From: Corythucha ciliata
Lineage: Eukaryota; Arthropoda; Insecta; Hemiptera; Tingidae
Reading direction: 5' to 3'
Assembly (NCBI GenBank): GCA_038030265.1
Contig: CM075939.1
Location: 34,329,253-34,393,252, forward strand
DNA length: 64,000 nucleotides
How positions within the stretch are numbered: position 1 is the first letter of the stretch; every line of letters starts with the position of its first letter. Made by a program: the position numbers and the translations under genes. Below are positions 3,740 through 61,420 of the stretch, piece after piece. The notes under the pieces were generated by a model. The model was not told where the DNA came from. It made no database searches and saw only the letters and a program-made list of their open reading frames with translations.

Positions 3740-4285
3740 TTCAGGGTGTAGGGTGTAAAAAAAACGACTGGACAGAGATAACCCAGTGAAGGGGCATCTC
3801 ATTTCTGATCAAAATGATCATTTGCACGTTTTCGAAATTCCTCTTTGTTTCCGAGATATCCGCTTTTTTTATGCTTTTTTAAAATCAGAAACAGCTTGTT
3901 GCGCACGCAATAATTGTTGCAATAGCAAAAACGATGAGCCCACGAAAAAACCAATTCTTCCGGAATTATGTTTCCTGGCTAATAAGCTCAAAAACGTAGT
4001 GGATGTCGTCTGATCTGTATTAAAATAGCCTCTTTAAATAGAAAAATTTTGTGTTCTTTCCAATGGGCTCATCATTTTTACTATTGCAACAATTATAGCG
4101 TGTGCAACAAGCTATTTGGGGGGGGGGGAACCACAGAAAACGGCCGATATCTCGGAAACAAAGCGGAATTTCGGAGAAGTACAAATGTACCCCTGAGTTA
4201 CCCCCGCAAATGTAACCATGAGCTATGGTTTTTCTCTGTCCGGTCGCTTTTTGTACACCTTGCATACAGAGTAATTCAGGAGGAA
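3740..4285. repeat. Long imperfect inverted repeat (foldback) inside the hAT element
   Basis: Left arm about 3740-3960 and right arm about 4045-4285 are imperfect reverse complements. Shared blocks include CGAYYGGACAGAGA, a TTTCCGAGATATC block and an AATTGTTGCAATAG block preceding GATGAGCCCA. The spacer is about 85 nt. The two arms translate alike in opposite strands (FEIPLCFRDI on plus, SEIPLCFRDI on minus), which explains the paired ORFs here; they are not genes. Probably an older foldback or MITE nested in the hAT element. Confidence 0.7.
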
Positions 4286-5194
4286 TGTGACAAACTTGCA
4301 CTGGTGATTGTGGTGATAGGCGAAGTATCCATTTTAGCCGCAAATTCACGATTTTTCTCAATTTTTGCCGTGAGTTAGCGATTTTTCTCAATTTTACTTC
4401 ATGTTCCCGTAAGGAAGGAAGTTTGGTAATGGCACCACAACAAAATTCCCCATCGATGAACTGGCCATTTTTTCGAAATTCAATTTGGTTATTTTTAAAT
4501 TAATTTTTTAAACAAATTGACGAGGATGAATTCGAAGATTCGTTTCTCTTCGATTGTTTTGAGTTTTAGCTAGTGAACTTATTGATCAAATTGTGTCCAT
4601 TATTTCATTCATTGATCGTGTTGAACATTTTAAATTGATAGTTACCGTTAAAGAGAACTATATTAGGCTAAAAAATTCATTATTCGTCACGTCGTTAGAA
4701 TTTGTGTGTTCATGTTTTTTTTGGTGTTATTATTGCATCAATCGTTGACATGGGATGAATATTGAGAGACATAGAGATCTTTCCAGCAAATTTTAGAACT
4801 TTGGCATTTATATGAGAACAGAACTTCAGGACAGGCTAGGGCAAATTAATTAATTTTGATGGGTGAGTTTTAATGATTGATCACTCGTGTCGGAATTGTT
4901 TCATGTGAAAGGCATGTTGTAAGCGAACGACGGGAACACGGAAGTATCGTGGGGTCCTCCACACAAACTTGATTTAAATTTCAGTCATCAAAACTTTAGG
5001 TGTCGTCTACAGGGCAGGGGGGTCGCGAAGGACATGCTTGAGTTCAAACAAATCTAACCACAAGAAACTCTAACCACAAAATTAGTGAGTGAAATCCGAG
5101 AAATTGGTTTCTTCGTGAGCGTGGGGTTCTTCGTGTTTTGAATTATTGAACTTCTTTTGAAAGGATTTTGGGGTGAGGAACACGAATCATTATT

Positions 5195-5745
5195 TACCAT
5201 AAATTAGCGCTTTTTGCTAGTTGGCTACAAATTTTCTCAATTTAACCCCCAATTAGCTTTCGGCTATTTATCATGATTATAACCACTCATTAGTGTTTTT
5301 CCTCATTTTAGCCGGTAAAATTGTAGATTTTTGTACATTTCACCCATGAACTAGAGTTTTTCCCCAATTTTTGTCGCGAATTACGTAAAGCTTTTGGCTT
5401 TGGATTAAGTAATTTTTTCTGGCACAACGCTACCTTTAGAAGCCGCGAATTTGAGGTTTTGTCCATTCAAATCGCAAATTAGCGTTTTTCCCCACTTCAG
5501 CGCTTTTCAATTTTATCGGTGAATTAGCCACGGATTAACGATTTTTCGCCATTTTAGCTGTGAATTAGCGTTTTGTCTGAATTTTTGCGGTGATTTCGTA
5601 TTTTTCTTGATTTTAACCGCTACTGAGCCATTTTTCTCAATTTCATTCATGAATTAGCGCTTTTTCTGTACTTTATCCGCGGAAGCTTTAAGGAAACTTG
5701 AGCCGCGAAGTAGCGCTTTTTCTCACTTCTGTCCGTGAATTAGTA
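5195..5745. repeat. Degenerate tandem array, family 1, forward orientation
   Basis: Units of about 30 bp read roughly GAATTAGCG, TTTTTCTCAATTTTAGCCG and repeat with heavy divergence. The same family recurs at 4315-4400, 13285-13775, 18115-18340, 37030-37250 and 43490-44040 in this orientation. It is reversed at 6360-7370 and elsewhere. No coding potential. Confidence 0.8.
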
Positions 5746-6009
5746 GCGTACCGAGACCGAGAGATAGTGGCGAGGGGGCCCCCCGGGCTGATATGCCCGT
5801 CCCCGCCGGGCTGATGGGGCCCTAAAAATTATACATGTAATAGGCATATATATGTGGGCCTAAAAATGTGGATATTAAGGATCTATGTTCATGTTTGTAG
5901 TTTGTGAGTACGTGAAAACAAGTTTTTGGCATGCAGTTTGACAGCAATATTGGCTTTTTGCGACGATTTTTAATCTATCCGACCCGGGATGAAGTGCTTG
6001 CAGGTGATC

Positions 6010-7370
6010 AGCAAAGAGTATTACTGAATAATCGATTTAGCCCACAAAAGCGCTATTCTGAAGGCTCAATTTGAGAGAAAACGTAGCCTTCTACGGGTAA
6101 CTTCAAGACTAAAATAGAGAGAATGCGCTACTCCCCAGTATTTTTTAGGTCCGTATGCGGATAAAGATGAGAAGGCGTACTAATATGCTATTCTTGCAGG
6201 AAAGTACCAACGCAGCAAAAAGTTGGGAAAAATCGATAGTATTTGTGGACAAAACTGTTCAAAAGCCTTCATTCGCGGTATCCCGATGAAACATCCAGAC
6301 CGAATTGAGAAAAAATCACTGATTCTCGGTGTATAGGTGCCGCCTTATGTCTGAAATGAAGAAAAAACGCTAATTTGCTGTTGGTAAGATTGAGACGTGG
6401 TCCAGTTTTTGCTTTTCTGCAAGCGCTAAAAGGCAAGAGAACCCGCTAAGGCTGTACAATAGAAAAAAAAAACACACTAATTTGGGGCTAAAATTGAGAA
6501 CCCAACTGAAATTGCAAAAAATTGCCCATTCGCGGATAAAAAGTGAAAAGCCACTAATTCACAGCTAATTTTCGAAAAATGCTAATTCACGACTGAAATT
6601 GAGAAGAATGGCTAATTAGCTGCTAAAATTGGGACATGCGCTAATCCACGGCAAAAATTGAGAAAAATATCTAATTCGCTAATGAAATTGACAAAAAGCG
6701 CTATTTATTAGCGGCTAAACTTGGAACAATCCTATTTCACGGATTTAATTGAAAAGACTAGATAATTAATTCGCAGCTAAAATTGTAAAAAATCCGATAA
6801 TTTGCGGATAAAGTATAGAAAAAACGTTCATTTGCGGATTCAAATGAACGAAATCGGTTAATTCACGGCTATATTAGAGAAAACGCCAATTCACGACTAA
6901 AATTTAGTAAAAATGCTGACTCGGGGCTAAAATTCAGCAAAAGACAATAATCTGTTGCTTCTGAAGGGAACTTCGTGCCTAAACCTGAAAAAACGCGCTA
7001 GTCCATAGCTAAAAGTTAAAAACAAAATTGTATATGCGGGACAAAAATAGTTCGTACACCGCTAATTTGCGGCCAATTTTGAGAAAAATCGCTAATTAAT
7101 TAGCGCTGCTGAAATCCACGAAAAACTCTATACTTGCAGCCCAAAGTGCTAATTCACTGCTGAAAAGGTTCAAAAAAGCTAATTTGCTGCAAAAATCGAG
7201 GAAAACTTCAATTCATGGCAAAAATTGAGAAAAATCGCTAACATGGAATAAAAACGCTAATTCACAGCTAAAATCGAGGAAAATCACCTATTTGCGGACA
7301 AATCGTAGATGAAAAGCTCTGTAATTCACGGCTAAAATTGAAACTTCAATTTTCGGCTATTTTATAGTTT
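6010..7370. repeat. Degenerate tandem array, family 1, reverse orientation
   Basis: Units are the reverse complement of the array at 5195-5745: AAAATTGAGAAAAACGCTAA then TTCGCGGCT, about 30 bp each and strongly diverged. The centre between the two orientations (about 5750-6300) holds GC-rich sequence and a block around 6165-6240 (GATGAGAAGGCG..., GCAAAAAGTT) that recurs near 37270-37335. The array is followed by a transposon-like terminus ending near 7507. Confidence 0.8.
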
Positions 7371-7439
7371 TGAAATATATCAAATGCGATTCTTAGGTCA
7401 TTTTTTTCGCCCACCTTCCCCCCCCCCATCATTTTGCTA

Positions 7440-7507
7440 GACGCGGCCCTAAGGACACGGCGCCCCAGGGCGGTTGCCCGGCTCGCCCCTCCTTAAAGCC
7501 GGCACTG
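7440..7507. mobile_element. Transposon terminus, CAGTGCCGGC type (right end)
   Basis: Read on the minus strand, this end starts CAGTGCCGGCTTTAAGGAGG and continues GC-rich (GGGGCGCCGTGTCC). The same first 14 bases, as CAGTGCCGGCYTTA, begin another element at 36957 on the plus strand. It bounds the reverse-orientation family 1 array. I could not find its left partner or a target duplication, so the nested element's extent is undefined. Confidence 0.55.
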
Positions 7508-8214
7508 ATGGTTGATCTCAACCAAGTCGGAGAGAATTACTACATACAAAGATCACAATCTGCTTTGCTGGGCTGAATCTAACGAGGTAGAACGCCTAAG
7601 TTCCCGATCAAGTCCTAACGCCCAGTGCCCTGAAGGTTGCAACGAGACCATAAAATCGGTATCGGTGCAGATTAAGACAGCAACGTAGGGAAAAAATGTA
7701 TGCAGCTTGAGGGTTGAGGCACAAAATACTGCGGCAGGCCATTAGAGTACGTGTATTCTGGGCGTTCTCAATGTAAATTTTGAACCAACTGCTAAGCTAT
7801 ACGCTATAAAACAGCCTTGTGTCTTGAGTCATGGGTTAAAGGGTGTCCCGGTTTTAAGAAAACCCTACTTGATAGGCGTTCTCATTTGTCTCATTGTACC
7901 TATGCTATAATAGGCCAGTTCCGGGATTCTGTAGGCTTACCTTAGGGACCATTACCGAGAAAAATTAATCTGCAGTTACCAGATTTGTCAGGAGGGCTGG
8001 GAATCCGTCAAAGAGTTGATGGGGGGGGGGAGCAGGCATCGGTCCTCCGGCCCTTCGGGCTCAGCCCGATCGCCCACCCCTGCATCCGCCCCTGAGCCCA
8101 ACCAAACTTTAGGTCCCACTTAACACGAAGTTATCAACTCAACCATGGCACACAGAATGTCCCTAAGTCTGGACGTAAAATCGGCCCAGCGGAATTTGAG
8201 CAAAAAAAAAAAAA

Positions 8215-9585
8215 AAAATCGCCCTCAACATGCGGATAAAATATAGCTATGTGCTTATCTTTGGCCAAAAACGCGGCAAAAAGTTTGGAAAAAGCGCTAA
8301 TATTCGTAGTAATTGAGAAAACGCGATGATTCGCGACTACATAAATTATAAAGTGCGCTAATTCACGGCTAGCACCTATAAGATACGCTAATTAACTAAT
8401 CTATTTGAGAAACCCTGCTAATACGCTACTGAAACTAAGAAATTCAGCTGCAACTGAGATAAAGTGCTCATTCGCAGCGAAAATGGAGTAAAAAGCCAAT
8501 TCGCAGGTCGATTCCAGAAAATCCGCGAATCAGCGGTTGAATTTCGTGTAAAAACCGCTAATTGGCGGCAAAAATGGAGAAAAAGCGTTATTATGTTTGG
8601 CTAAGAAGTGAAAGAAAAGGCTAATTCACGGCTGAAATTGACAAAAAGCGCAAACTGACAGCCAAAACTTAGCAAATACGCTAATTAACGGATTTTGAGA
8701 AAACCCCCTAATTCGCGGCAATGATAAAAAAGTACGTAATTTGCGACTAAGAAAATGCGCTCATTCGCAGCTAACATAGAAAAAACGCCAAATCGAGGAT
8801 AGTGAAAATCCAAAGGTACCTAAAATTGATTCAAAGCGGTAATTCACGACAAAAATTGAAGAAAAGCCACGATTCGTGGCTAAAATGGAGAAACAACACT
8901 AATTTGCGGGTTTGGTACATGAAAACCTGTTAATACGTGGCTAAAACTGATAAAAACCGCATATTTTAAGTTGAAATTCGCTGCTAAAATGGAGATAAAT
9001 GTTAATTCGCAGAAAAGTTTTGAAAATTTGCAGCTAAAATTGATTAAAAGTGGTAATTTTTAATTTGCACGGCTAAGGAGTTAATGAAAACGCGAAACTG
9101 AGAAAACCCGCTAATTTCCAGCTAATAATTGAGCTAATACTCGCTCATTCTCACCTAAAATAAAGAAAAACGCTAATTCGCAAATCAATTCAAGAAAATC
9201 CGCGAGTTTGAGGATAAATTCGAGTAAAAACCGCTAGTTTGCGACCAAAATTGACAAAAAGCGCTCATTTACGGCCAAAATGTATGAAAATACGTCAATT
9301 CTCGGATCAATTTGAGAAAATCCGCTGATTCGCCAGGAGTAAAATAGATACTACTCTGATAAAATTAAGAAGTATTTCGCGCCTAAAACTGATGAAAACC
9401 GTTAATTCAATTGCGATAGAAGCGTTAATGCATGGCAAAACTTGAGAAACAGCGCTCGTTTGCATGACTATAAGGAGTGAAATAAAACGCTAATTCGTGG
9501 CTAAAAACAGCTAAAAAGAGAAAAAACGCGAAATAGAGTAAAATAGGCAATTCGCGGCTAAAATTGTTAAATTATTCGCCTCTTT
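8215..9585. repeat. Degenerate tandem array, family 1, reverse orientation (second block)
   Basis: About 1.4 kb of diverged units of the AAAATTGAGAAAAACGCTAA type, lying just outside the hAT element. It ends at a GC-rich stretch near 9610 (CCCCCGGCCCGGCGG), possibly another element end. It lies within the last CASK intron, 185 nt from the exon at 9770. Confidence 0.75.
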
Positions 9586-9769
9586 TGGGTCTTCAATAAA
9601 GAGATTTTCGCCCCCGGCCCGGCGGTCTGCTATAATTCTTAACGAGAAATCTATGATGGACACAGCCATATAAGAAGTCTTGTGCTGTCACGAGACCGTT
9701 TCCTTCACTCAGCCCACCAATATTCTAGCAATCACACTCCCCGAGAACACAAATCAAAGTGAAACTTAC

Positions 9770-9945
9770 ATCCGCCAAATTATTCAAATGAGGGGCGGCG
9801 ATGAACACAACATACGGCGCGAATTCAGCTATCCGAAGCATTTTCAAAGCTTGAGGCTCGACGTCGAGTATCGCCACTCGACCTTCAGCGTGGATTCTGC
9901 GAATGGTCTCCAATTTTGTCCCATACATGGCCTCTTCGTGACTCC
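9770..9945 (-). CDS. CASK: CASK exon: guanylate-kinase-like domain, central to C-terminal part
   Basis: The exon is 2 + 174 bases (58 full codons). It encodes [34 protein letters not shown] and [18 protein letters not shown]. Features are the [10 protein letters not shown] strand-helix, the conserved LDVEPQALK motif and the [11 protein letters not shown] core strand. The acceptor is CTGACATTTAG; the donor is GCGGAT then GTAAGT. It splices to FDGSLERL in the last exon, giving NNLADFDGSL, close to the Drosophila wording as I recall it. Confidence 0.97.
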
Positions 9946-10018
9946 CTAAATGTCAGATGGACAGGGGAAGAGATTAATTGAGTTTAGGTTCTGTGATGAA
10001 ATTCGGGCTCCTTATTAC

Positions 10019-10493: not shown

Positions 10494-12479
10494 CTGGAAA
10501 AACGCAACAATATTAATAAATTTGAATGCATTTGAAAAGTACGTTGAAGAAAAACAGATAAAATTCCTGAAAGCAGTGCAAAACAGATAGTAGCTCGATT
10601 TTAAACGCAGACCATCGGTAGCATTCCATGGCTGGGTTCGGAACCCTGCATCCATCACGAACAGGCCAAATAAAGGCACGTAGCACAGACTTCGTGTGAT
10701 TTATGCATTGTTGCCGTACAAGAGTGAAGGAGGGGGAGGGGGCTCTTGATAACTACAGCCCTTCATCGAGAAATTTATACTGGGCAAATAGGTTCTTGGT
10801 GATATCAACCAACCAATTGTTTGAGCTTCCTTTATGAAAGGAGTAATTACAAACGGCTCCCCCTTCCCGCAGCTAGTGAGTTTAAATGAGTCATTACAGG
10901 ATAATTACACATCTTCCCGATACCTACATCAAAATTAAGCTAACGATGTACGTTACCAGGTCGTTTGCATAGCAAAAGCCCAGAGGGGAATTTCAAATTT
11001 TACCCTTTACAATCATTTTTGCCTCATTGGCACGAAGGGGCGGGCAGGGGAGAGTTAATTTAACTGCGGAGGCCGGCTGCACGAAAATCGAGTTACCCTG
11101 TTTGAATAATGAAAATATACATTCCAGAAGAAGACATAACCGTTTCATTTTTATATAAATCCCCTCTTCGCTTACAACTGAAATCTTAAATTAGGAACTC
11201 ATCAAAGCTACAATATTTACAGCATTCTTTGAGTCACCCTTGGCTTTAAATTTTCTTCTCTAGTAAATTAAAATTAACGATTTAGAATTTTTATCTTTAG
11301 ATTCAGATATTAAGAAGATCGTTGCGGTAGCTTAAGAATAGTGCGTGTGCTTCAACTACAAGACGATTTTTAAAAATTAGAAGCATACAAAAAGCCCCCC
11401 GTAAAGCCTTTTCCATGCAAATTTTGAATTAGCTTATCCCATTACCATTGTCTATCATTATAAGGTATTATAAAGCGAATGAACCAGTATATGCAGCTAT
11501 ATTAAAGCATTGTACTTGGACCTTAAAAGTGCTCAATTTTTTTTAAAATTAAAAAACGAAACAAAATGAAGTTGTGTCATTTGATTATTAAGTAACTACA
11601 GCTTTAGCACTGTCTACAGTTATAAAAATTCTTCGACCGGTCACCCCTACTTTTATCTGCATCTTAACAGAATTTTATAATACGAAACTCTGCGATATAA
11701 AACCTACAGTTCCAGTAAAATACAAAAATAAAATCATGCTGATATGCATTCTTTTGGGCGAGCGGGACCTGTTAAATTTTTACCTGTAGAACCGTCACAG
11801 CCTTCAGTATGTGACGAACACCCAGGAACTGAGTCACCTTAAGAGACAATAATAGGGGAAAAATAGTTTTTCTAGCAAACAACCAACATTTTCGTCTAAA
11901 GTACACATTGTGCGAAGAAAATAATGATCTGAGCATTGCCAGGGAGGAATCGTTTTTTTTGCTTACAGCCTTGTTAGTTTGAGAACAGAGAGAAGAATAT
12001 TCACTCACACCACGACTATAACGCCTACCCAGACTGTGGGGGACGTTTCAGTGGTCCTACAGAGCGGACGCGCCAATTCTATTGTTGGCTGCACTGGTGC
12101 AATTATGTTGCACGGTCCTTGGACACATAAAACGATCACAAGAAACGTTTTACGCCCATGTGTTGGGTCTAGAGCCAGAGCCTTGACTTTGAGGCGAGGG
12201 CAAACAACTTAAAAAACAAGGAGAAACGGCCAAAAATTAAGGTAATAATTTTTGAATGAAAAAAACCTAAAAAATGGAATGATTTCATATACTTCCTTTC
12301 AAATATCCTCAGACGTCTAGTAAGCCACATGTATCTTACGCTTACATGTACGTGTGTATCTGTGTGTGCTGTGTAGCTTATGTGTGTATCCAAAGTCACA
12401 AGCAATTTATTGCTAATTTATTGTAAATAAATACTTATCTACTTGCTTTCAAATAACATGAATTTAAAACCTTTGTCTT
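10494..12479. other. Intronic DNA, nothing recognised
   Basis: The first 2 kb of the 9.7-kb CASK intron (numerically lowest part). AT-rich, no repeat array and no recognisable ORF; small G-rich runs near 10730. I find no splice-flanked exon candidate. Confidence 0.5.
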
Positions 12480-12910
12480 TTTGAAACCCCTACTTGCGAA
12501 TTTCTATCCTTTAAAAAATTCGTTTTGGGGGTTGCTTCTCCAAATTGCCAAATTCGAGAGTTTGGTTCTTCCAGAAAACCAAATTTCGTTAGTTAGGCAC
12601 TTCATAAAGGCCAATTTCACAAATTTGGCGCCAAAAATCATTTGCATGCCTGTAGCTCTTTCAAGCCCCACTTTGGCTGATTTCCCTAAAATAAAAAATA
12701 ATTTCGCAAAAACCAAACTTCATGGATTTGGTTCTTTCATGAATACATTTCACGGTTTTGGCGCTTCAAAAAATATATTTCACGCCCTCGGCATCTTGAA
12801 ATCGCTAATTTCGCGGGTGTAGCTCCTTCAGAAAACCCTTTTCCAGATTTGGCTGTTATAAGAGACCAATCACGCTTCCGAACTTCAAATTTCCCTCCTT
12901 TGCCAACTTT
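12480..12910. repeat. Degenerate array, family 2, forward orientation
   Basis: Units of about 35 bp with the theme AAATTTCACGGTTTTGGC-GCTTC, TTCAGAAAACC recur. This is the reverse complement of the family at 26150-27500 (theme GAAATTTGGTTTTGAAAGAG followed by CCAAAACCCGC). ORFs on both strands (113 and 70 residues) arise from the repeated units and are not genes. Confidence 0.65.
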
Positions 12911-12967
12911 AAACCCCAACTCGGGCAATTTTGCTGCTTCTAAACAGTTCCACCACCTATACTTTGT

Positions 12968-13090: not shown

Positions 13091-13284
13091 GTTAATCTTT
13101 AAAAAAAACTCTGCGGGGCTTAGCTGCAAATATTTCCATCCCATAGTCAGCGTTTCACCTCCACGGGGGTTCTACATCAACCCAGGCGAGCCGAATCTTC
13201 TACTAATGCCAGCCTTGTAGACATTTGGCGCCCCCCTCTTCCACTTCACACCCACCGCCGACTAAACCCATAAGAACCAAATCT

Positions 13285-13775
13285 TCTTGATTTTAGCCCG
13301 CGAATTAGCGTTTTTCCTCATTTCAGCCGCTAATTACCGAATTTATACATTTGCAGTTTCCCCAATTTTCACCGAAATCAGCGGTTTTCCTGAATCGTAC
13401 ACACGCGAATCAGCGCTCTTTACTCATGAGCATTTCATTTTTCATTTTCGACCACGAAGTTGCCTAGGGGAAACCACGAATTGGCGTTTCATTCATTTTA
13501 ACCGTGATTTAGCGCTTTTTCCACACTTCAGCGCTTCAGCTCAATTTCATCAGGTAATTAGCGATTTTCTTACTTGTTAATTTGTGTTTTTCCTGATTTT
13601 AGCCGTTGTAACGAACAATTTTTGACTTAATTTTACACACTTTGTCTTAATTTTAGCCGCGGATTCGTGATTTTTTTCACTCTTAGCTATGAACTGGAAT
13701 TTGTTCTCATTTGAGCTCTCCAAGCCGCGAATTAGTGTTTTCGTAATTTTAGCAGCGAATTAGCGCTAAAATTAT
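13285..13775. repeat. Family 1 array, forward orientation, interrupted by a LINE
   Basis: Units such as GCGAATTAGCGTTTTTCC. The array breaks at about 13780, where LINE coding sequence starts, and resumes in the same orientation at about 18115. The LINE therefore inserted into an existing array. About 90 bp upstream (13189-13225) is a diverged copy of the CAGTGCCGGC-type terminus (GCCAGCCTTGTAGACATTTG). Confidence 0.7.
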
Positions 13776-13789
13776 TGATTGTGTCGGAT

Positions 13790-14807
13790 TGACTTCCTCA
13801 CGGAGCACGGGGTCTTGATCCCCTATCGGACGCGTCCCTCGAGTGGCGCCTCGCCTCAGCGTGGACGGCGCGACCCACCCAGGCTGAGAGGTGGTTCGGA
13901 ATAAAATACGGACTCGTGGACCAATCAAGGGTAAGGAGGCGTCCTGAGACCGGGACGAAAGATGGTGTGGCCTACCAGAACCTCAGCAGATTGTTGCGAC
14001 CTCGGCGTACTTCCCTGGAGATAGCGATCAGGGCCCGCCACCGAGGGAGGTGATCAACCTGATCGACGCCTGCAGGCGCAATGGCGAACAACTGCTTATC
14101 GGTGCGGATGCTAACGCCCATCACTTGGCATGGGGCAGCACCAACACAAACTCTAGAGGTGAGTCCTTAATTATTTGAGTACCTGGCAACTAGTGATTTA
14201 TCCGTGTTGTACAGGGGCAATAAGCCCACCTTTGTAACATCAAGTAGGAGGGAGGTCCTCGACCTCACCCTCACTACTTCCTTACTGGCCGGTAGGGTCA
14301 GGAACTGGAGTGTGTCCGAGGCGCCATCGTTCTCGGACCACAGGTATGTCATCGTGGTGATCAGGGGGGTGGAGAGGATTCGCGAGACATACTACAACCC
14401 TCGTAAGACGGATTGGGGCGGTTTCGGAGATCAAGTAAATGGTAGGCTTAGCTTCGGGGGCGGGCTGGACCTACGAGATGGTGATGATATTGAGAGAGCA
14501 GCACAGGAGTTGCAGGAGGTGCTGGTAACCTCGTATCAAGCAAATACTCCCTTGAGCTTGCGCTCATCGACCAGGAATGTTCCCTGGTGGAATGAGGAGC
14601 TCGAGGGGTTGAGAAAAGCATCGCGGAGGCTATTTAATCGAGCAGTCCACGACGGGCAGTGGGAGGCCTATAGAGCCAAGCTGGCGGAGTATCGGCGGGG
14701 GCTGAGGAGTTCGAAGAGGGCGTCATGGAGGGGATTCTGTCAGGAGGCTGAAAATGCCTCCTCGGTGGCTCGCCTTCAGCGCCTTCTCTCCAAGGACCCG
14801 CTGAATC
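13790..14807 (+). pseudogene. LINE endonuclease domain, C-terminal part, and linker
   Basis: The frame at 14101 reads GADANAHHLAWGS, an EN catalytic-core motif. After a frameshift near 14175 the frame from 14204 reads YRGNKPTFV, then PSFSDHRYV, the SDH motif near the end of EN. The linker follows (VPWWNEELEGLRKASRRLFN), ending KDPLN, where the Mutator-like element is inserted. The longest open stretch is 257 codons. The N-terminal EN residues are absent, so it is a dead copy. Confidence 0.8.
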
Positions 14808-15699
14808 GGGTGACTACGCGAAGCTCCCGGTCTGAAGTGAAAGTAATTTGCAATGTACTCGATGCTCCCCGGCAAGTTCTATCAGGCATACGCGATGATC
14901 CCCGTCAACTCTCTTCCCCTTCCAAGGCGTTTCAAGCCTTATCAGTGATTCGGACGGACTGGCTTTCACTGATCTAGTAATTACCTTGATCAGAGCGCGA
15001 TAGCATACTATTTGTATCAACAACACAATGGATCCGGCCACGTTTGTAGCAACCGGTACTCGCCGCGATCGCGATGTGCTATTGGTGGACGGTTTTAAAT
15101 TTTATTACCAAAAACCGTTGGCAAATAAAATGAGTAGGTGGGTGTGTAGTGTGAGGAAGAGTAAATGCGCCGTAAAAACAATAGGAAGGCAGATTGTGGA
15201 TGTAGTCGGTAGTCACGACCACGACCATTCCCCAGCTGTAGAAAGCGACGTGGAGAAAAGGGTGCTCCAAAATAATGTGAAACGGAAGGCTTTGCAAGAC
15301 ATCTCGTCCCGACCGTCAAAGGTTAGTTCAGTTAGTTATTTTTTCTCAATTTTTCTCAGTTTACGCTGGCCTTCTTTAAATCTTTTGTAGATGTTCAAAG
15401 TGCGCCTAATTCAAAGAAAGATAGAAAGAAGACTGCATGAACGTGATTGTTTCGTACTTTTTTTGCAGGTAGTTAGAGCCGCAATTAGAGCTGCGTTGGT
15501 CCTTTGGTTTACCTATGGTCAACCCCACTGAAGTCCCGGCTAATATACGATAATTTATTCATGCATTCTTTGTTCACAAAGCTTCCTTATCATTGGTGAC
15601 GGGGAGCTCCGCGTACATGGCGAGAAAGGAAGCGGGGAGCTTCACGTATATGGAGAGAAAGGAAGCGGGGAGTCTATGGGGAGCTTCGCGTATGCGCCC
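14808..15699. mobile_element. Mutator-like (Phantom-type) DNA transposon fragment inserted in the LINE
   Basis: The sequence GCTGAATC flanks the segment on both sides (14800-14807 and 15700-15707; identity extends to 11 bp as CCCGCTGAATC). Removing 14808-15699 restores the LINE reading (KDPLNPVGTL). The ends are inverted repeats with shared core ACGCGAAGCTCCC, starting GGG at both ends. Near the right end the terminal motif is repeated about three times (GGGGAGCTCCGCGTACATGG and variants). An 8-9-bp duplication together with a FLYWCH zinc-finger exon points to the Mutator superfamily, whose insect Phantom branch carries FLYWCH domains; hAT is the alternative. No transposase core is present. 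Confidence 0.7.
15028..15321 (+). CDS. FLYWCH zinc-finger exon inside the Mutator-like element
   Basis: There are 98 codons from ATG to a canonical donor (AAG then GTTAGT). Residues 16-30 read DVLLVDGFKFYYQKP, followed by RWVCSVRKSKCAVKT and VVGSHDHDH. Trp38, Cys40, Cys47 and His63/His65 fit the FLYWCH zinc finger, a DNA-binding fold found in Mutator-like transposases and in host proteins such as Drosophila mod(mdg4). The following Lys/Arg-rich stretch ends RPSK. Downstream exons encoding a DDE transposase are missing, so it is probably a leftover first exon. The frame is intact with no stop, which suggests youth or constraint. The alternative is a captured host exon. Confidence 0.7.
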
Positions 15700-17165
15700 G
15701 CTGAATCCCGTTGGCACACTGATGAAAGTTGGCGACCCTGATGGGGGTGCACTTTCTGGGGGCCGTGGGGGTGGTGTCGTCCATTCCGCCCTTGGAACCC
15801 TCACGAAGGAGAGCGACAAGAGTGGACTGGCATGTGGCTAGGGAGGTGGTCACAATGGGAAGGGTACAATGGGCCATTGGCTCGTTTTTCCCCTTCAAAG
15901 CTTCTGGACCGGACGGCATAATCCCCAAACACCTGCAGGAGGGGGGGCCGGAGGTTGCCAGACGACTGTGTTGCATCTTCAGGGCTTGCCTGGCAATGGG
16001 CAGAATCCCGGAGGTGTGGCGGAGAGCACGGGTTTTTATTATTCCTAAGCCGGGGCGCCCGTCATATGCACTGGCTAAGGCGTGTCGACCCATATGTATC
16101 ACCTTTCGTTTTGAAGACGTTGGAAAAACTGGTGGATAGGCATATCTAGGAAAGCTGCCTCCCACCAAGGCCACTACACCAAGGTCAATTTGCCTACCAG
16201 CAGGGTAAGTCCTGCGAAACGGCACTACACCAGCTGGTTGCTAGGCTGGAGGATACTCTAGAGCACAAGGAACTAGCGGTGGGAATCTTCCTGGACATAG
16301 AGGGTGCCTTTGACAAGACCTCTATATCCTCGGTTATTGAAGCTGCAGGACGGCATGGCATCTGCGACACCATTGGTAGGTGGTTGAGGGTGCTGCTTGA
16401 AAGCAGAACAGTTACCGCCACGCTCCTTGGGGAATCCCTGGAGGTGGCTGTAAAAAAGGGGTGCCCACAGGGGGGGGGGGGTTGTCACCCCGAAAGTGGG
16501 GCATGGTGGCCAATTCCTTATTGGTGCGGTAGACTGATAACGGGTTCTGTGTCCAGGGATACGCAGACGACATTGTCGTCGTCATTAGAGGGCGACATGT
16601 CGGGATGGTGTCGGACTTGACTCAATCAGCATTGAGTATAGTGAAGGACTGGTGTGGGAAGGAAGGGCTGAATGTAAACCCTGACAAGACCAACCTGGTG
16701 GCCCTCACTAGAAAGAGGAATTTGGGGGACTTTAAAGAACCCCGGTTCTACGATCCCAGGATATCTCTTCGGAGGGAAGTGAAGTATCTGGGTGTAACCC
16801 TGGACTCCAAGCTCACCTGGAACAAGCACCTGGGCGGAGTTGCCAACAGGGGTAAAATGCTGCTTATGAGGACGAAAAATGCCTGCGGCAAAACGTGGGG
16901 ACTGAGGCCACATATGGTCCTATGGCTATATACGGCGATAGTCAGACCCACCTGACATATTGCGCCGTGGTCTGGTGGCACAAAGCGGAACAAGTGGGGG
17001 CCAAAAATACCCTCACTAGTGTTCAGAGACTGGCGTGCCTGAGGGTCACTGGGGCTATGCACTCCACTCCTACTGCAGCGATGGAGATACTGACGGGACT
17101 CCCTCCCGTCGATATCTTCATCAAAGGGGCGGCGGCGGCAATGTCGGCCCTAAGGCATAAATGGG
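15700..17165 (+). pseudogene. LINE reverse transcriptase domain, frameshifted
   Basis: Readable motifs in order are FKASGPDGIIPKHLQ (about 15890), KTLEKLVDRHI (about 16110, a different frame), FLDIEGAFDKT (motif A, about 16285), GCPQGG (motif B, about 16458), YADD (motif C, 16560-16571) and GLNVNPDKTNL (motif D, about 16666), then the thumb region ending in LPPVDIFIKGAAAAMSALR. The catalytic aspartates are still encoded. The break between motifs A/B and C coincides with a 12-nt G-run at 16470-16481, suggesting homopolymer expansion caused that frameshift. Confidence 0.85.
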
Positions 17166-18008
17166 GTGGTTGATGGAGGGGTGGGGGGCCTTAATTCCAG
17201 GAGGACCCACACTGGGATCCTGGACACGGTTCGGGACCCAGTGCTGGGCATGATGCCGCACATCATGCCCAGAACCCTCGGTGAACGCTGTCCCTTTTCC
17301 GTTCGCCTTGTGTACGGGAAGGGGCAGGCGGTGAAAAGAAATCACAAGGAGAGGTTGTGGTTTACAGACGGCTCTAAAACGAATAACGGGACTGGCGTGG
17401 GGGTGTACGGGGTGGAACCCGAATGGAGGCTGTATACACCTCTGGGGGTACACACCTCGGTCTTCCAAGCCGAAGTCTACGCAATCAAGGCCTGTGCTGC
17501 TGAGAATATACGTAGGGACGAGCAAAATGCCCATATACGTATTCTTACGGATAGCCAGGCTGCCATTAAAGCACTAACGGCTCCGATATTGAGCTCCGGG
17601 CTTGTATGGGACTGCCGCCAAAGCCCACACACTGGCCCAGGACCATCGACCTTCAGGATGGCGATAGCCAAGTGGGTTAATGCCCAGGCGGCTATACGCT
17701 GGCTGAGAGTAAGCGCATGGTCGAAGGACCGTGCAGGAGGCTTACGAGCAAACTGCTCTGACTTAGCCGGAGAGACCTTAGAACGGTTATAGGCCTTATC
17801 ACAGGATTCTGCCAGCTCCGTTATCTCACATAAGCCGCATTGGGGTAACCACGGAGTCCCCGATGTGCAGATCGTGTTCGAATGTGAGGCGCTCGCGGGC
17901 CGCCGGCTCAGCATCTTCGGGGCCGACCTACTCGAGGGTGCTCCGACCGGCGAAACTCTAGCCGAGGAACTCCTAAACCTTTTCAGAGGGAAGGGGATCC
18001 TGGACTAG
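17166..18008 (+). pseudogene. LINE ribonuclease H domain and C terminus
   Basis: The open frame 17166-17792 contains LWFTDGSKTNNGTGVGVYG, VFQAEVYAIKACA and RILTDSQAAIKAL, which carry the Asp-Glu-Asp catalytic set of RNase H1-type domains. After a break, the C-terminal tail reads VFECEALAGRRLSIFG and ends NLFRGKGILD at the stop 18006-18008. RNase H in LINEs degrades the RNA strand during target-primed synthesis. The zinc-knuckle-like part expected before FECEALA is damaged. Confidence 0.8.
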
Positions 18009-18114
18009 ATCCACAGACCCAGGGGGGGGGGGGCAAAATAATTCACCAAGGATTCCGTGTCGGGGGGGGGGGGGCAACTTTCCTACCCTTGGGTGTTGTT
18101 TTAAAAAAAAAAAG

Positions 18115-18340
18115 TGTATCTGCGAACTACTGCATTATTTTTCAACTTCATCCACGAATTTAGCTGTTTTCCTCACAATTTTAGGCGCGAAGTATCGTTT
18201 AACCTGAGAGATGAATCAGCCATTTTCATCCTCAAGTTCAGCCCCGATTTTAGCGTTTTTCTCAATTTAGGTTCAGAAAGTTAAATCTAGAAACCTAAAA
18301 TTAGCGCTTTTTCATAATTTTGGCCACGAATATTACCACT
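18115..18340. repeat. Family 1 array resumes after the LINE
   Basis: Units such as TTTTCCTCACAATTTTAGGC in the same orientation as 13285-13775. It marks the right-hand side of the array that received the LINE insertion. Confidence 0.65.
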
Positions 18341-36956: not shown

Positions 36957-37930
36957 CAGTGCCGGCCTTAGACATTTGGCGCCCCCGGGCGACTCATTCA
37001 ACAGCGCCCCCATGAAGTCATCATTCATAATAAGCCGCAATTTGTGCGTTTTCTCAATTTTCACCAATAATTGGCGTTTTTTCTGCACTTCAGGCCCTTC
37101 TTCTCAATTACATCGGTGAATTAGCAATTTATTGTCTCCATTTTAGCCGTGAATAAACGATGTGTCTCCATTTTAGCTGCGGGTAAGCGATTTTTCTCAA
37201 TTTTTGCCGTAACTTACCGCTTTCTAATTGGTTACGAATAAGTTGCCTCCGGAAACCGCTCTTTAAGAGGATGTATATGAGAAGGCGGACTTGTATGCTT
37301 TTCTTGGGGAAATTACGTAGCAAAAAGTTTGCAAAAGCGCTAATATTCGTGACTAAAGCAGTGAAAATGCGTTATTCGCGGTATCTGCACGAAACAAATA
37401 AGAAACCATAAATTGATAAATAATCAGTGATTCGCGGTGTAACTATAGATATGCCTCTTTACGCTACTAAGAAACGCTAATTCAAGACTATAAAAGTGAG
37501 ACAAAAATCGTGGCTAAAATTAAAAATACTGATTCGGGTCTAAAATTGAGAAAAATGACATATTCGCAACTGAAATTGCAAGAAATCGCCCATTAGCGGA
37601 TACAACAGAGAAAATCCGCTAATTCGCGGCTAAATTTGCAAAAAAACGCTAATTCACGACTGAAATTTGGAAGAATGGCTAATTAGCGCAGCTAAAATTG
37701 GGGCAAACGTTGATCCACGGCAAAAGTTATTGAGAAAATCGCTAGTTAAATAACTGCTAAAATTGAGAAAAATCTCTAATTCATGGACAAATAGGAATAA
37801 ACTAACTCGCGGATAGAAAAAAGTTCCTAAAAAATGTTAATACTCGGATGCAAATGATAAAAATCGGCTAAAATTTAGTAAAACGCTGGTTCGTGGCTAA
37901 AATACACGAAAACACAAATCCGTGGCTTCT
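36957..37930. mobile_element. CAGTGCCGGC-type element carrying a two-way family 1 array
   Basis: The left end is CAGTGCCGGCCTTAGACATT followed by TGGCGCCCCCGGGCG. It is followed by forward family 1 units (37030-37250), a central block (GATGTATATGAGAAGGCG, GCAAAAAGTT at about 37270-37335), then reverse units (37335-37930). The same order (forward array, central block, reverse array, CAGTGCCGGC end) occurs at 5195-7507. The right terminus is missing here, replaced by LINE-like sequence at 37933. Confidence 0.6.
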
Positions 37931-37932
37931 GA

Positions 37933-38100
37933 ATGCAACTAAAACTATTGCTGGGCATGTCGGTGAAAATTAATGAAATTAACGTGTTCCTACATCATCG
38001 GGAGGACATTCTGGCGTTCGGCGTGACTGAGCATTGGCGGCGTCGGGACTCGCCTTTATGGCTCTCCTGGTGGTTTTTCATGTATATCGAGCTTTGGGGG
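37933..38100 (+). pseudogene. Short LINE endonuclease fragment
   Basis: The plus frame reads INEINVFLHHREDILAFGVTEHW. This resembles the N-terminal part of CR1/RTE-like endonucleases, where a helix is followed by a D-I/L-x-x-x-TEHW motif. The ORF continues as low-similarity sequence to 38205. Too short to assign to a clade. Confidence 0.45.
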
Positions 38101-41950: not shown

Positions 41951-43181
41951 TATTAAAGAACACACAAGAACAAGTCTGGTCTACAATTAAATGAACAAAC
42001 CAATCGAAAATGCTTGCGCATACGTTTTTTCCCCCAACAGCCCATTTTTAAGTTATACAAGGTAAGGGCTGTAGTATAGCGCGCAAATAAAATAAAATTC
42101 AGGTTGTATATGGGCGTAAAGGGGAAAAATTACGATCGCGTTCTTTAAATTACCTCTAAAGAAATTGAAAATTCCTCATTTATGACATCGTGTTATAGAC
42201 AATTTTTTCTTCTATTTCAGACAGCTTTATGAGCTCATATTTTGCTGCATTAAACCGCCAAAGCGCGTACTAAACCGTTAAGTTAGTCACAACATAAACC
42301 TTTCCATTCCTTCAAACGAGAACGGGCACCTTTTTGTTTGGCACCCAACTTTTCTCGAACATGATTGATGGTTTCTTGGTTGCCACGTGCGATTTGATAA
42401 AGCTGCGGAGGTGGGATTTCGAGGACAGTGTTGCCATTTTAAGACCGCGCCCGTTCGAGATTAATCTTATAGCTTTGGGATATATTGGCGATTGTAGCTA
42501 AGCGAGGCGATCTCTGGTGACTTCACTGAGAAGTTACGAAAGCGGAACTTTTTTCTCATAAAAGTAGGTATGGCAGAGTGGGACTATTCGCACGCACATC
42601 CACAGCCAAAAGTGATGATAGTACCGGCTTCATTATCAAATAAACCCGAAACCAGTGATACATAAAATAAACTAGATTTCTCATCACCGAAAGCGAGCCA
42701 TCAGAAACTGGATGAGAGGGGTGGGGTTCAAACTTAGGTACCAGTTATGTAGGTATTGTCATATAATCAGTGGGGTATTACACCTATCGGGGCCCCGGGC
42801 GGAAATCTTTATGAGCCCCCTTAGAGCCGTCTCTGAAGCTCTGAAACTAAGTATTTGCTTAAAAGGCGTCAAATCGGTCATTCTAATTAGTATGGGTATT
42901 CGTGTTTAACATTTATATTATCGACGTAAACCCTGTTATTTCGTATTTTTTTGTGTCCAGTTTCTTCGTTTCTATGGTCTTACCCATCTGTTCGGAATTT
43001 ACCGGAATTTACCATGTAACAAATACAAGGGTTAACATTTTTCTTGAATAGCCCTAGTGACTCACCGGTTTCGAATCGAAATAAGCAAATACTCAATTTG
43101 AGTGACGGCCTGAGGGGTACGCATCCCATTCTCAACTGGTTTTCAATTTTAGCCGTGAACTAGCAGTTTTTTTCACCTTTA

Positions 43182-43301
43182 GGCCCGCAGCAAATTGAGC
43201 CCACGCGTCACCCAAGCTCAAAAAACGGTTAAAAGACGATCCATTTTCAACTGTTTTTTGAGCTTGGGTGACCCACGCGTGGGCTCAATTTGCGGCGGGC
43301 C
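43182..43301. mobile_element. TTA-target hairpin MITE (GGCCCGC ends)
   Basis: A 120-bp near-perfect hairpin: GGCCCGCAGCAAATTGAGCC then CACGCGT...CACCCAAGCTCAAAAAAC on the left, mirrored on the right. Flanked by TTA at 43179-43181 and 43302-43304. A 3-bp TTA/TAA duplication with GG-starting ends is typical of the PIF/Harbinger superfamily. Confidence 0.8.
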
Positions 43302-43304
43302 TTA

Positions 43305-43452
43305 GACCCGTATGCTAAGCCGTTCCTCGAAATTTCCTCGTCTCCAACCTTCCTCGCAAACTGTAGGATCACACGTTATTTTATAATTTTTCCAGTTTGG
43401 GAGGGAGGTTTGAGGTTGAGGAAAATTCGAGGAACGACTTGGCATACGGGCC
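43305..43452. mobile_element. TTA-target MITE (GGCCCGTATGCC ends), directly abutting another
   Basis: 148 bp with inverted ends GRCCCGTATGCYAAG and CGTTCCTCGAA. Flanked by TTA at 43302-43304 and 43453-43455, sharing the first TTA with the neighbouring MITE. A truncated relative lies at 25490-25605. The ORFs here (43290-43559 and its complement) are MITE plus array sequence. Confidence 0.8.
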
Positions 43453-43489
43453 TTAGTCATGAATATATGAGTTCCAAAAATCTTAGCGG

Positions 43490-44040
43490 CGAGTTGACAC
43501 ATTTTTCCCCTTTTAGCAGCGAATCACCGTCTTTCAAATTTTCAGCCGGGAGTTTGTAATTTTCCTCAGTTAAAAAAAGTTTGAGCTTGTTCCATATTTC
43601 AGCCGCCATTTAATGTTACCCTTAATTTTAGCTACGAATGAACGTTTTTTTACGATGCCACAAATTATCGTGTTTCTCAGATTTAGCCGCGAATAACTGC
43701 AATTAGTCTCAATTTTAGCGTATTTTTTCAATTTTAGCAGGGAGTCACCGTTCATCTAATTTTTAGTCACGAATTAGCAGTTTTTTCAGTTTCAGCCACT
43801 TAGAAACAGCAGATTTTCTCACATTCAGCCTCGAATTAACGTATTTCTGGTTTGTAGCTTTGAATTAGCGTTTTTTCAATTTTTAGATTAAGAGGGTTTT
43901 CTCTTATTTCAGCAGAGAATTACTACTGTTTTTCTAATTTTTAGCCTCGATATTAATAGTTCTTTTACTTTAGCCATTAATTAGCACCTTTTCTCACTTT
44001 TAGCCGCGAGTTAACGCGTGTTTTCCGAATTGCCCTCATG
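43490..44040. repeat. Family 1 array, forward orientation
   Basis: Diverged units such as GAATTAGCGTTTTTTCAATT and TTTAGCCGCGA. The two MITEs at 43182-43452 sit within this array, whose first units are at about 43140-43178. Confidence 0.7.
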
Positions 44041-49864: not shown

Positions 49865-50051
49865 AGCCTCGCTTACACGGGGCTAGCTTACAAGCTAAAA
49901 GCCAGCGAGTGGCTATGTAAATTAGCCCGCCTTTCTATTTTTGCTGCTATTTACACTGGGATAGTGAACAAAGACGATGATACGGGGCGAGTTTACACGC
50001 TGCTAGCGATCTCGCTTTTAGCTAGTAAACTAGCCCCGTGTAATCGAGGCT
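49865..50051. mobile_element. TAA-target MITE (AGCCTCG ends)
   Basis: 187 bp with inverted ends AGCCTCGMTTACACGGGGCT extending through AGYTTAC, flanked by TAA at 49862-49864 and 50052-50054. PIF/Harbinger-like by target duplication. Arms of about 50 bp. Confidence 0.8.
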
Positions 50052-50149: not shown

Positions 50150-50420
50150 CGCTCGAGGAAGAAAAAAACCCCAATTCGCAGCAAAAGTGGAGACAACGCC
50201 AACTCGAGGTTAAAATTTAGAAAACGACAATTCGCTATTTCTGGAAGCAACTTGTGGCTAACGTGAGAAACAAGCGGCTGCGGCTAATTCGTGACTAAAA
50301 GTGGAAAGAATCGCTAGTTCGTGGCTAAAATTGTGGAAATGCGTGAATTCACAGCTTGAGGAAAAACGCTTATTCGATCTGCTGAAATTGAGAGAAATCA
50401 TTCGGAGCTAAATATCTGTG
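50150..50420. repeat. Family 1 array fragment, reverse orientation
   Basis: Units such as GTGGCTAAAATTGTGGAAAT. About 270 bp, strongly diverged. Confidence 0.6.
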
Positions 50421-55914: not shown

Positions 55915-57017
55915 CCGCCCCAGCCAAAAATACGCGGCTACAATTGATAAAAATCAATATAAGGGTAATTCACCGTTTCTCATGGCAATTGTCATTGATC
56001 AAATTCCTAATTCACCGCTAAAAATCGAGAAAAAGCGCAAATTTATGGACCAAAGTGAAAAACCAATAACTATAGTTCTAGAATACACGGAGGAAAATCG
56101 ATAATTCAGGGCAAAAATTGGAAAAAGCGCCCGTTCGCGGCAAAAATTGAGAAAAAGCGCCGCTATTCGCGATCTCCTTGACGAATTCTGCTAAAATCGT
56201 GAAAACCCGCTAATTCACGGCTATGCAAAAGAGAAAACCATTCGTGAAAAAATTGAGAAAAATCGCTAACTTGCGGCTAAAATTAAGAAAAACATTAATT
56301 CGCGACTAAAATAGGAAATTCGCCCAATTAATGAATGGAAGGAGAAAAATTGCTAGTTCACCACTAAAATTGAGAAAAAACGTTAATTCATGACTGAAAA
56401 AAAAAAAAAATCAAAATTGGAGAAACACAGTAATACACGGCTAAATTTGATTAAAAAAAAAAAAAAAAAAATGAGTGAAAGCAGAAATTAGAGGCCAAAA
56501 ATGAGAAAAATCGCGGTTTCTGGGGACAAATTCGGCTATAGTCGCTGAAAAAGCATTGATTTATAGCTATAAAAGTGAAAAAAAGAAACTGGTTCTCGGA
56601 TAAAATTAATAAAACATTAATTAGCAGCTAAAAAAGGAAAATGTCACTTCACGGTGTCTGGCGGCAACTACATCTAAAATTGAGAAAAGCTAGTTCGCTG
56701 CTAAAGCTGAGAAAAGCGGTACTTCGCGGCTAAAATGATGAAAAGCACGAATCCGAGGTTTGTGGAGACAAATTCGGCCAAACTCGAAAAAAGGCGCTAT
56801 AAATTCATAGCTGAAAGTTAACACAACTGCTAATTCGTGGCTAAAACTGAGAAGAACGTAAATTAGCTGCTGAAATAAAGATAAACCAATAATTTAACGC
56901 TACGTGAAAGTTATATTATTTTATTAATAAGAGACCGAGAGGGCGACATAATAAGAAGAGATTAATAAGTAATAGAGATTTCTGCCCCGCGCCCAGATAT
57001 GTGTGGGTCCGCCTCTG
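55915..57017. repeat. Family 1 array, reverse orientation, with hAT-like right end
   Basis: About 1 kb of diverged AAAATTGAGAAAAACGCTAA-type units. The region ends at TGTGGGTCCGCCTCTG (57002-57017), which on the minus strand is CAGAGGCGGACCCACA, similar to the hAT end CAGGGGCGGATRCA at 3676/8094. No left end or target duplication was confirmed. Confidence 0.6.
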
Positions 57018-60717: not shown

Positions 60718-61139
60718 TAAGAGTTACCGAATCATTTCAGCTATATAGAATGTATAGGGTCATCGTTAGCCGCAATGTACGTCTATTTGTGTAAATTTTC
60801 ACGAAAAATTTGAAGTTGACAACGAATCCTCAATTATTGCACACGATTTAGATTCCCTATAGCCCTTCAAGAACGAAGTGTCGCCCTTATGGAAAAACGC
60901 AGGCCACGTTCAGCACTTCAGCCTCAAAGCTTCCATCCAAGCAGGGCCGTTTCCCACAAGGGCGTTGACTCGGGAGGGGGCAAGAGCGGGCAGCTGTCCA
61001 CCCCTCTTCAAGTTGTCTTTGCTAGAAACCCAGCATCAGTTCGAAACCGTCAATTTGTCACTTCAAAAAATCGTAATTATCTTGTTCCTCCCAAAGAACT
61101 GATTTCCACAGGCAGTATGGTCATTTCTCGCGTAGTCGT

Positions 61140-61420
61140 TTCACGACTGGAACTGAGAAAAACGCTAATTCGCGGTAAACATTGAGAGAAATCGCTCATT
61201 CACTGCTAAAATTGAGAAGTCACCAATTCAAGGTTGAAATTAAGAAAAGGCTACTTCGTGCTTATTGAAGGTAACTTCAGGCCTACGCAAAAAAAAAAAC
61301 GCTAATTCAGAGCTAAAAGTTGGAAGAAATCGCTAATTCAACGCTAAAAGTGAAAAAACACTGATTTGCAGATAAAATTGTGGAAATCGCTAATTCACGA
61401 ATAAACAGTGATAACTAAAA
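61140..61420. repeat. Family 1 array fragment, reverse orientation
   Basis: Units such as ACTGAGAAAAACGCTAATTC and GCTAAAATTGAGAAG; about 280 bp. Confidence 0.65.

What the first reader, a model, noticed from the sequence alone, without database searches (positions are those of the whole stretch)
5195..7507. Two-way repeat array with CAGTGCCGGCYTTA termini: candidate undescribed element architecture
Forward family 1 units, a unique centre with GAGAAGGCG, then reverse family 1 units, then a CAGTGCCGGC end. The same order from a CAGTGCCGGC left end occurs at 36957-37930, with the same centre. This looks like a non-autonomous element whose body is nothing but diverged about 30-bp units in opposite orientations, effectively a giant degenerate foldback.
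Basis: inference. Interest (0 to 1): 0.75.

Follow-up and report, generated by a model that had tools for sequence, protein, structure and literature searches.

The report
Jumping element of back-to-back repeat arms
This is one of many old copies of a small jumping DNA element without an evident gene, in an insect-like genome, whose body is largely short repeats pointing one way in its left half and the other way in its right half; the kind is known, this member looks new.

Summary
5187-7507 is a near-complete copy, and 36957-37940 a right-truncated copy, of one dispersed element: a 14-bp terminus (CAGTGCCGGCYTTA), a left arm of diverged ~30-bp units on the minus strand, a non-repetitive centre, a right arm on the plus strand, and the inverted terminus. 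The window's 400.9-Mb genome holds 663 exact termini (reversed-pattern control 4). Of 65 termini sampled, 56 have at least 3 units within 700 bp; in 47 of these the first three point as in the window. Arrays flank the centre on both sides in 15 of 20 loci read, copy B included. Two-ended copies (0.8-2.6 kb) carry 8-bp target-site duplications, some perfect. Unit order is conserved between most copies tested, so the array spread inside the element. Best reading: an old non-autonomous hAT-type element with hypertrophied, oppositely oriented repeat arms. 'Nothing but units' is overstated: units cover 36-62% of eleven copies. 'Foldback' fits loosely: terminal repeats are 14 bp and the arms are mostly not in-register inverted copies. 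No transposase partner was found. A cod hAT MITE with tandem-repeat arms is published, so this is a new variant of a known kind.

The parts
5187..7507 (+). Element copy A: near-complete two-way array element, lacking about 200-250 bp at the left end
   Evidence: aligns with two-ended genome copies L062 (5188-7503, 82%) and L065 (5187-7507, 81%), scores 1311 and 1121 against 414 and 467 on the opposite strand
5229..5745 (-). Copy A left arm, 12 scored ~30-bp units
   Evidence: unit profile
5746..6153 (.). Copy A inner stretch with a GC-rich patch (5745-5825) and extra stretches relative to L062 (63 and 76 bp); origin not resolved
6154..6370 (+). Copy A centre with GAGAAGGCG
   Evidence: homologous to 37264-37475; 40 scored relatives in the genome, copy B included, when copy B's centre is the query
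6380..7349 (+). Copy A right arm (25 scored units counted from 6097)
7350..7493 (-). Copy A right subterminal GC-rich, unit-free stretch
   Evidence: resembles the R-type end, the type of 26 of 57 sampled genomic ends
7494..7507 (-). Copy A right terminus CAGTGCCGGCTTTA
36957..37940 (+). Element copy B, right end lost
36957..36970 (+). Copy B left terminus CAGTGCCGGCCTTA (L-type end)
37047..37220 (-). Copy B left arm, 5 units
37264..37475 (+). Copy B centre
37476..37914 (+). Copy B right arm, 13 units
8210..9575 (+). Copy C: part of the centre plus an arm of 28 units (read as a right arm; L062 agrees, L065 aligns better the other way round)
   Evidence: centre hit 8210-8345, E 4e-4; unit order shared with copy A right arm, z 5.9; for the orientation doubt
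13204..13767 (-). Copy D: degenerate left end plus left arm of 9 units
   Evidence: end matches 36960-37012 with score 47 against shuffle maximum 23, but only E 0.2-0.6 by nhmmer; order shared with A left arm, z 4.3
43100..44016 (-). Copy E: possible left end with 3 mismatches (43100) plus arm; apparent nested insertion about 43190-43460
55926..56887 (+). Copy F: arm of 20 units, order shared with A right arm, z 3.9; arm identity doubtful; bounded at right by a different hAT-like end (57017)
61135..61417 (+). Copy G: arm fragment, 8 units
50170..50341 (+). Copy H: arm fragment, 4 units
18135..18335 (-). Copy I: arm fragment, 4 units, beyond a non-LTR insertion
4321..4379 (-). Copy J: 2-unit fragment

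Best explanation
It is an old family of non-autonomous cut-and-paste DNA transposons of hAT type. Shown: a 14-bp terminal inverted repeat CAGTGCCGGCYTTA with distinguishable left and right subterminal regions; arms of diverged ~30-bp units that in most sampled copies run in opposite directions from the two ends; a unique centre; 8-bp target-site duplications in many two-ended copies; no long ORF in copies A and B; unit order conserved among most copies tested. Inferred: a hAT transposase supplied in trans cut and inserted it; the arms grew by tandem duplication of a subterminal motif of the kind hAT transposases use as accessory sites; the units had diverged to roughly 70% identity before or while the element spread; internal deletions later produced shorter and one-way copies.
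For: 663 exact termini against 4 for the reversed pattern. 56 of 65 sampled termini have >=3 units within 700 bp; first three units '---' in 47 of 56, against 360 and 145 of 2000 random 700-bp stretches of this array-rich window. Centre loci: both arms in 15 of 20 read, at least 3 units on one side in all 20 (the best 20 of 40 scored, 608 candidates, copy B among them). TSD: one search lists 17 two-ended copies (8/8 in 5, 7/8 in 7, 6/8 in 3, 5/8 in 2); flanks shifted 20 bp match 0-5 of 8. Two end types: position 11 is C in 29 of 31 left and T in 24 of 26 right ends. Unit order: A against L062, L065, L052, L003 and L006 clearly beats all 60 within-arm permutations each; in the window 10 of 66 arm pairs beat all 100 permutations. 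A/B divergence is even across the unit (57 of 281 core, 50 of 255 periphery), as for neutral decay after insertion. hAT dimerisation domain: 150 hits scored of 655 candidates. No ORF >=130 aa, stop to stop, in A or B.
Against: No hAT transposase was found between such ends: by eye, none of the 79 strict left and 54 strict right sites lies within 6 kb of the 150 listed hAT hits (nearest about 48 kb); 505 further hAT candidates were not listed. One hAT locus read (L089) showed no such ends. One search kept pairs with TSD >=6 of 8 unless both ends were exact; pairs chosen by exact ends alone gave 7,7,5,7,7,8,3, 5 (L065) and 7 (L090). L001, L004, L005 and L014 share flanks, i.e. one insertion later duplicated; L087/L088 likewise. 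6 of 56 arrays start '+++' and 3 are mixed; 9 of 65 termini lack an array. Unit order is not conserved in L090 (225 against permutation maximum 225) and barely in L001 (333 against 328). A conserved core in the unit is not robust: core/periphery diversity 0.35/0.49 by the full profile, but 0.53/0.53 to 0.47/0.52 when each part is anchored by the other at score cut-offs 4 to 8, and 0.40/0.51 only for the best 40.
Confidence: 0.82

Rival explanations
1. A foldback element of the Mutator (MULE) type, like Muta1 or FB, with tandem subterminal repeats in long terminal inverted repeats.
For: Insect MULEs carry subterminal tandem repeats and 8-9 bp duplications (Muta1). Arms here pair when folded: 146 of 309 pairs in copy B and 305 of 763 in copy A join the two arms, and flipping one arm costs 31 and 52 kcal/mol (shuffle control for B only).
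Against: Terminal repeat only 14 bp, ends differ beyond it; arms not in-register inverted copies in 8 of 10 copies; the CAG...CGG end is hAT-like (recalled). 9-bp duplications and MULE transposases were not searched for.
Confidence: 0.1
2. Independent minisatellites that happen to be captured next to, or spread apart from, a common transposon end.
For: Units also occur in fragments without ends (copies G, H, I, J); L090 shows no conserved order; some copies have long one-way arrays.
Against: Order of diverged units is conserved between copies; ends, arms and centre co-occur; in the two-ended copies listed the array lies inside the duplicated target site.
Confidence: 0.05
3. It is the same transposon, but the arms are not binding sites: they are a passive by-product of slippage in an old element, or were kept as a long hairpin (for example as a source of small RNA). 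This concerns the role of the arms only, so it does not compete with the element reading.
For: Unit core not robustly more conserved than the rest; unit number varies widely, from 7 in 810 bp to 35 in 2360 bp.
Against: Orientation of units relative to the terminus is strongly consistent (47 of 56), which slippage alone does not demand.
Confidence: 0.35

Closest known systems
gadMor-hAT-1784, a hAT-derived MITE of Atlantic cod (PMC12368964; outline and search passages seen)
   Same: non-autonomous, hAT-assigned, two arms made of tandem repeats in opposite orientation, short internal sequence; a sister subfamily keeps only one arm
   Different: 167-169 bp units in two ~600-bp terminal inverted repeats in cod; here ~30-bp strongly diverged units, 14-bp terminal repeat, two different subterminal ends, unit order conserved among most copies tested
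Muta1 and other Aedes MULEs, 'type2 Foldback' (PMC5225508; search passages seen)
   Same: insect element, subterminal tandem repeats inside inverted ends, 8-9 bp duplications
   Different: 9 copies of a 12-bp repeat in 145-bp terminal repeats around a transposase gene; Mutator superfamily
Tetris foldback of Drosophila virilis (PMC4079207; outline and search passages seen)
   Same: non-autonomous, tandem-repeat arms in inverted orientation around a variable middle, 8-10 bp duplications
   Different: ~220-bp units within long terminal repeats; unit arrays expand into satellites; its authors suggest Mutator
Kat1 hAT transposon ends, Kluyveromyces lactis (PMC4763223; search passages seen)
   Same: hAT; subterminal hexamer AATTCA/TGAATT repeated, with differing polarity at the two ends; the unit here often reads AATTCA or AATTCG
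   Different: six hexamers only; the shared hexamer may be chance
Drosophila FB and sea-urchin TU foldback elements (recalled, not read)
   Same: short tandem subrepeats making up inverted arms
   Different: long inverted arms; other superfamilies or unassigned

Membership tests
hAT superfamily | 8-bp target-site duplication (named as a distinguishing feature in a PMC4763223 passage) | tested here: met
   8/8 in L006, L030, L046, L052, L062 and L087/L088 (one insertion); 7/8 in 7 more and L090; exact-ended pairs with 5/8 (L003, L065) and 3/8 (L007, ends 5177 bp apart) also seen
hAT superfamily | short terminal inverted repeat of the CAG... type | tested here: met
   CAGTGCCGGCYTTA at both ends; that this is hAT-like is recalled
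hAT superfamily | transposase with hAT dimerisation domain in an autonomous partner with the same ends | tested here: inconclusive
   hAT domains abundant but no listed one within 6 kb of strict ends (compared by eye; 150 of 655 candidates listed)
MITE | no coding capacity | tested here: met
   no ORF >=130 aa in A or B; for genome copies only the 45 longest ORFs of L001-L080 were looked at by eye, no family search
MITE | small size, about 400 bp in a PMC9659126 passage | tested here: not met
   two-ended copies 810-2598 bp
Foldback element | long terminal inverted repeats built of tandem subrepeats | tested here: not met
   terminal repeat 14 bp and different subterminal ends; arms not in-register inverted copies in 8 of 10 copies; in the window A_R/B_L did beat 100 permutations, z 3.3
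Foldback element | tandem subrepeats in opposite orientation on the two sides of a middle domain | tested here: met
   not in the one-way copies
Satellite/minisatellite locus | array exists independently of a mobile element | tested here: not met

The most novel reading that the evidence does not exclude
The arms are the working part: transposase recognition is spread over dozens of degenerate 30-bp sites that point in opposite directions from the two ends, a 'multi-site' end architecture, and other array families in the same genome (family 2) independently use the same plan.
Probability: 0.15. Interest if true: 0.62.

Novelty: new variant of a known kind. Interest (0 to 1): 0.45.

Why it matters
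It shows that much of what looks like scattered degenerate minisatellite DNA in this window is the remains of one transposon family, with a unit order that lets copies be aligned and dated. It gives a countable case of a hAT-type element whose subterminal repeats have grown to dominate the element, useful for testing whether such arms are transposase-binding arrays or passive growth, and how elements seed tandem repeats.

Tried and rejected
Scans of viral contigs and genome contigs with unit and terminus patterns found nothing; the tool says records near the window's genome may be left out there. A text search for terminus and unit letters found 32 papers, 20 listed, none about transposons by title. 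Rfam: none. Relation between family 1 and family 2 units: not above chance (16 and 29 of 200 permutations as high). CpG decay: window CpG o/e 1.01, not pursued. A conserved unit core: apparent but not robust under independent anchoring, so not claimed. DNA curvature by phased A-tracts: AA signal near 9.8-10.2 in some arms, no control run, not claimed. No array-free short copy was found: 61 single-end loci checked for a partner at 54-334 bp with TSD of at least 6, none. ORFs of L001-L080: 45 longest viewed by eye, no hAT transposase recognised, no family search. One hAT locus (L089) read for ends: none found in the stretch scanned. The arms as inverted copies of each other: two of ten copies reach 1 of 100 permutations, the rest not.

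Selection to keep in mind: pairs L001-L006 were chosen because the two ends lie close together; the 57-site sample is every exact site listed on contig 1 from 1.2 to 39.9 Mb; 8 further contig-1 sites beyond 49.8 Mb were added; 20 single sites at 41.3-49.3 Mb were asked for and not obtained. Some sampled sites are duplicates. L007 (exact ends 5177 bp apart, TSD 3/8) was outside the 4-kb limit. The unit profile was trained on this window.

Full report
Where it lies. The window is eukaryotic, G000:C3:34329253-34393252 of a 400.9-Mb genome in 57 contigs.

Checking the observation. A profile of the ~30-bp unit, trained on the window, finds 168 hits above 9 bits; ten Markov shuffles gave 8-14 positions each. 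Grouped at 10 bits, the larger blocks are purely one strand: minus at 4321-4379, 5229-5744, 13281-13764, 18135-18335, 37047-37218, 43136-43164 and 43470-44015, plus at 6097-7348, 8265-9574, 37476-37913, 50170-50341, 55926-56886 and 61135-61417. At the finding, a minus block, a centre and a plus block lie in this order and end in CAGTGCCGGCTTTA at 7507; at 36957 the same order follows CAGTGCCGGCCTTA. The centres and right arms of the two copies align over 6154-6972 and 37264-37940 with a score of 440 (shuffle maximum 51), 519 of 643 aligned bases identical.

Fixed order, not independent satellites. For 12 arms of the window (66 pairs) I compared alignment scores with those after permuting unit order 100 times. 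Ten pairs beat every permutation, the strongest being A right/B right (z 7.1), A right/C (5.9), G/E (4.5), A left/D left (4.3), G/I (4.2), B right/H (4.0), A right/F (3.9); the other 56 did not. So arms of different copies share unit order. Left and right arms of one copy are another matter: A right/A left reached z 2.0 (4 of 100), though A right/B left beat all permutations (z 3.3). In ten copies tested directly, left against reverse-complemented right arm was no better than permuted units in eight (6 to 66 of 100 as high); L006 and L044 reached 1 of 100. For blocks C, E and F the two reference copies L062 and L065 prefer opposite orientations, so which arm they are is open. Folding as single-stranded DNA, copy B gives -123 kcal/mol against -106 (sd 6, minimum -117) for 20 shuffles and -92 with the left arm flipped; 146 of 309 pairs join the arms.

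Copies in the genome. The exact terminus occurs 663 times (341 + 322), the reversed pattern 4 times. I read all 57 sites listed on contig 1 from 1.2 to 39.9 Mb and 8 sites beyond 49.8 Mb. Of these 65, 56 have at least three units in the first 700 bp inside the end; the first three are all minus (as in the window, read inward) in 47, all plus in 6, mixed in 3. Nine lack this, two of them (L057, L060) without any unit in 3 kb. Some sites are not independent: L001 and L002 each give two ends, and L008/L009, L012/L013/L046 and L087/L088 are close duplicates with shared flanks. Random 700-bp stretches of the window reach three units in 360 of 2000 cases and start with three minus units in 145. A letter rule splits the 57 ends into 31 left-type (position 11 C in 29) and 26 right-type (T in 24).

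The centre. Copy B's centre has 40 scored relatives, itself included, from 608 candidates; I read the best 20. Fifteen, copy B included, have at least three minus units on the left and three plus units on the right; all 20 have at least three units on one side. The query's 3' part resembles units, which may favour array neighbours.

Duplications. Among L001-L080, 17 two-ended copies of 810-2598 bp were listed with ends of up to 3 mismatches and either TSD of at least 6 of 8 or both ends exact: 8/8 in five (L006 TTCGCGAT, L030 CTAACCGC, L046 GCGATTGC, L052 GTCGGATG, L062 AGTATGAG), 7/8 in seven, 6/8 in three, 5/8 in two; flanks shifted by 20 bp matched 0-5 of 8. L087/L088 add one 8/8 insertion and L090 a 7/8 one. 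Four of the 7/8 copies (L001, L004, L005, L014) share flanks and are one duplicated insertion. Pairs chosen only by exact ends gave 7,7,5,7,7,8,3, 5 (L065) and 7 (L090). An 8-bp duplication is thus well supported, not universal.

Full length and decay. Copy A (5188-7503) matches L062 bases 204-2356 at 82%, score 1311 against 414 for the other strand, so A is full length but for its left ~200 bp. With unit order permuted within arms, L062, L065, L052, L003 and L006 clearly beat all 60 permutations; L001 barely (333 against 328) and L090 not (225 against 225), so there seem to be subfamilies with different arrays. Among 114 locus pairs aligning over at least 500 bp, duplicates included, the median identity was 78%: the family is old. 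Between A and B, substitutions are even across the unit (57 of 281 core, 50 of 255 periphery), while units within A differ by 36% (core) and 47% (periphery); correcting for decay by hand I infer about 30% difference between units in the mobile ancestor. The lower core value is not robust. Units cover 36-62% of eleven copies against 1.3% of the window outside arrays.

How it works. hAT ends carry short terminal repeats plus subterminal repeats that affect transposase activity, and in Kat1 the subterminal hexamer differs in polarity between the two ends (passages). The simplest account is a non-autonomous hAT-type element whose subterminal repeats expanded into arms. Past mobility is shown by ends plus duplications; the hAT label rests on the 8-bp duplication and the end motif; the role of the arms is inference. 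Copies with one-way arrays but perfect duplications (L030, L046) mean either that one arm suffices or that deletions came after insertion. No transposase was found between such ends.

Against what is known. A cod hAT MITE with two ~600-bp arms of 167-169 bp tandem repeats is published (PMC12368964), as are Mutator-type elements with tandem subterminal repeats (PMC5225508) and Tetris (PMC4079207). So the plan is known; the 30-bp units, the strong divergence with conserved order, and the short true terminal repeat are what differ. My paper searches did not show this family; I saw listings and the passages named. The library lacks most subscription papers, and Repbase and Dfam were not available.

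Changes after re-checking.

Noticed in passing
12247-12917 (-), 26186-27446, 38626-39865, 45375-45853: A second family of ~30-bp unit arrays (about GGTTTTTGAAAGAGCCAAATCCGCGAAATT) whose order is also shared between blocks (12 kb/38 kb and 38 kb/45 kb strongest); likely a second dispersed array element; ends not studied.
   Followed up: partly
13900-18040: Broken non-LTR retrotransposon (endonuclease, reverse transcriptase and weak RNase H matches) lying between two minus-strand unit stretches, perhaps inserted into one element copy.
   Followed up: partly
3676, 8094, 42835, 57017, 28092: Other hAT-like ends: CAGGGGCGGAT, CAGAGACGGCT, CAGAGGCGGAC and CAGGGTGACCAGACGTCC; the one at 57017 bounds array F.
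   Followed up: no
L002, L030, L046 (L012 and L013 are near-duplicates of L046): Two-ended copies with one-way arrays; L030 and L046 have perfect 8-bp duplications.
   Followed up: partly
L008, L009, L035, L040, L043, L048, L053: Copies sharing a left-end variant and showing minus-strand units only (5 to 44 of them) in the 3 kb read; L015 has a similar end but a two-way array.
   Followed up: no
3819-4187, 61482-61617, 49859-50057: Small hairpin-forming inverted repeats (84-91% complementary arms), MITE-like in look.
   Followed up: no
9725-9952 (-): ORF with an exon resembling the CASK guanylate-kinase region (recognised from memory).
   Followed up: no
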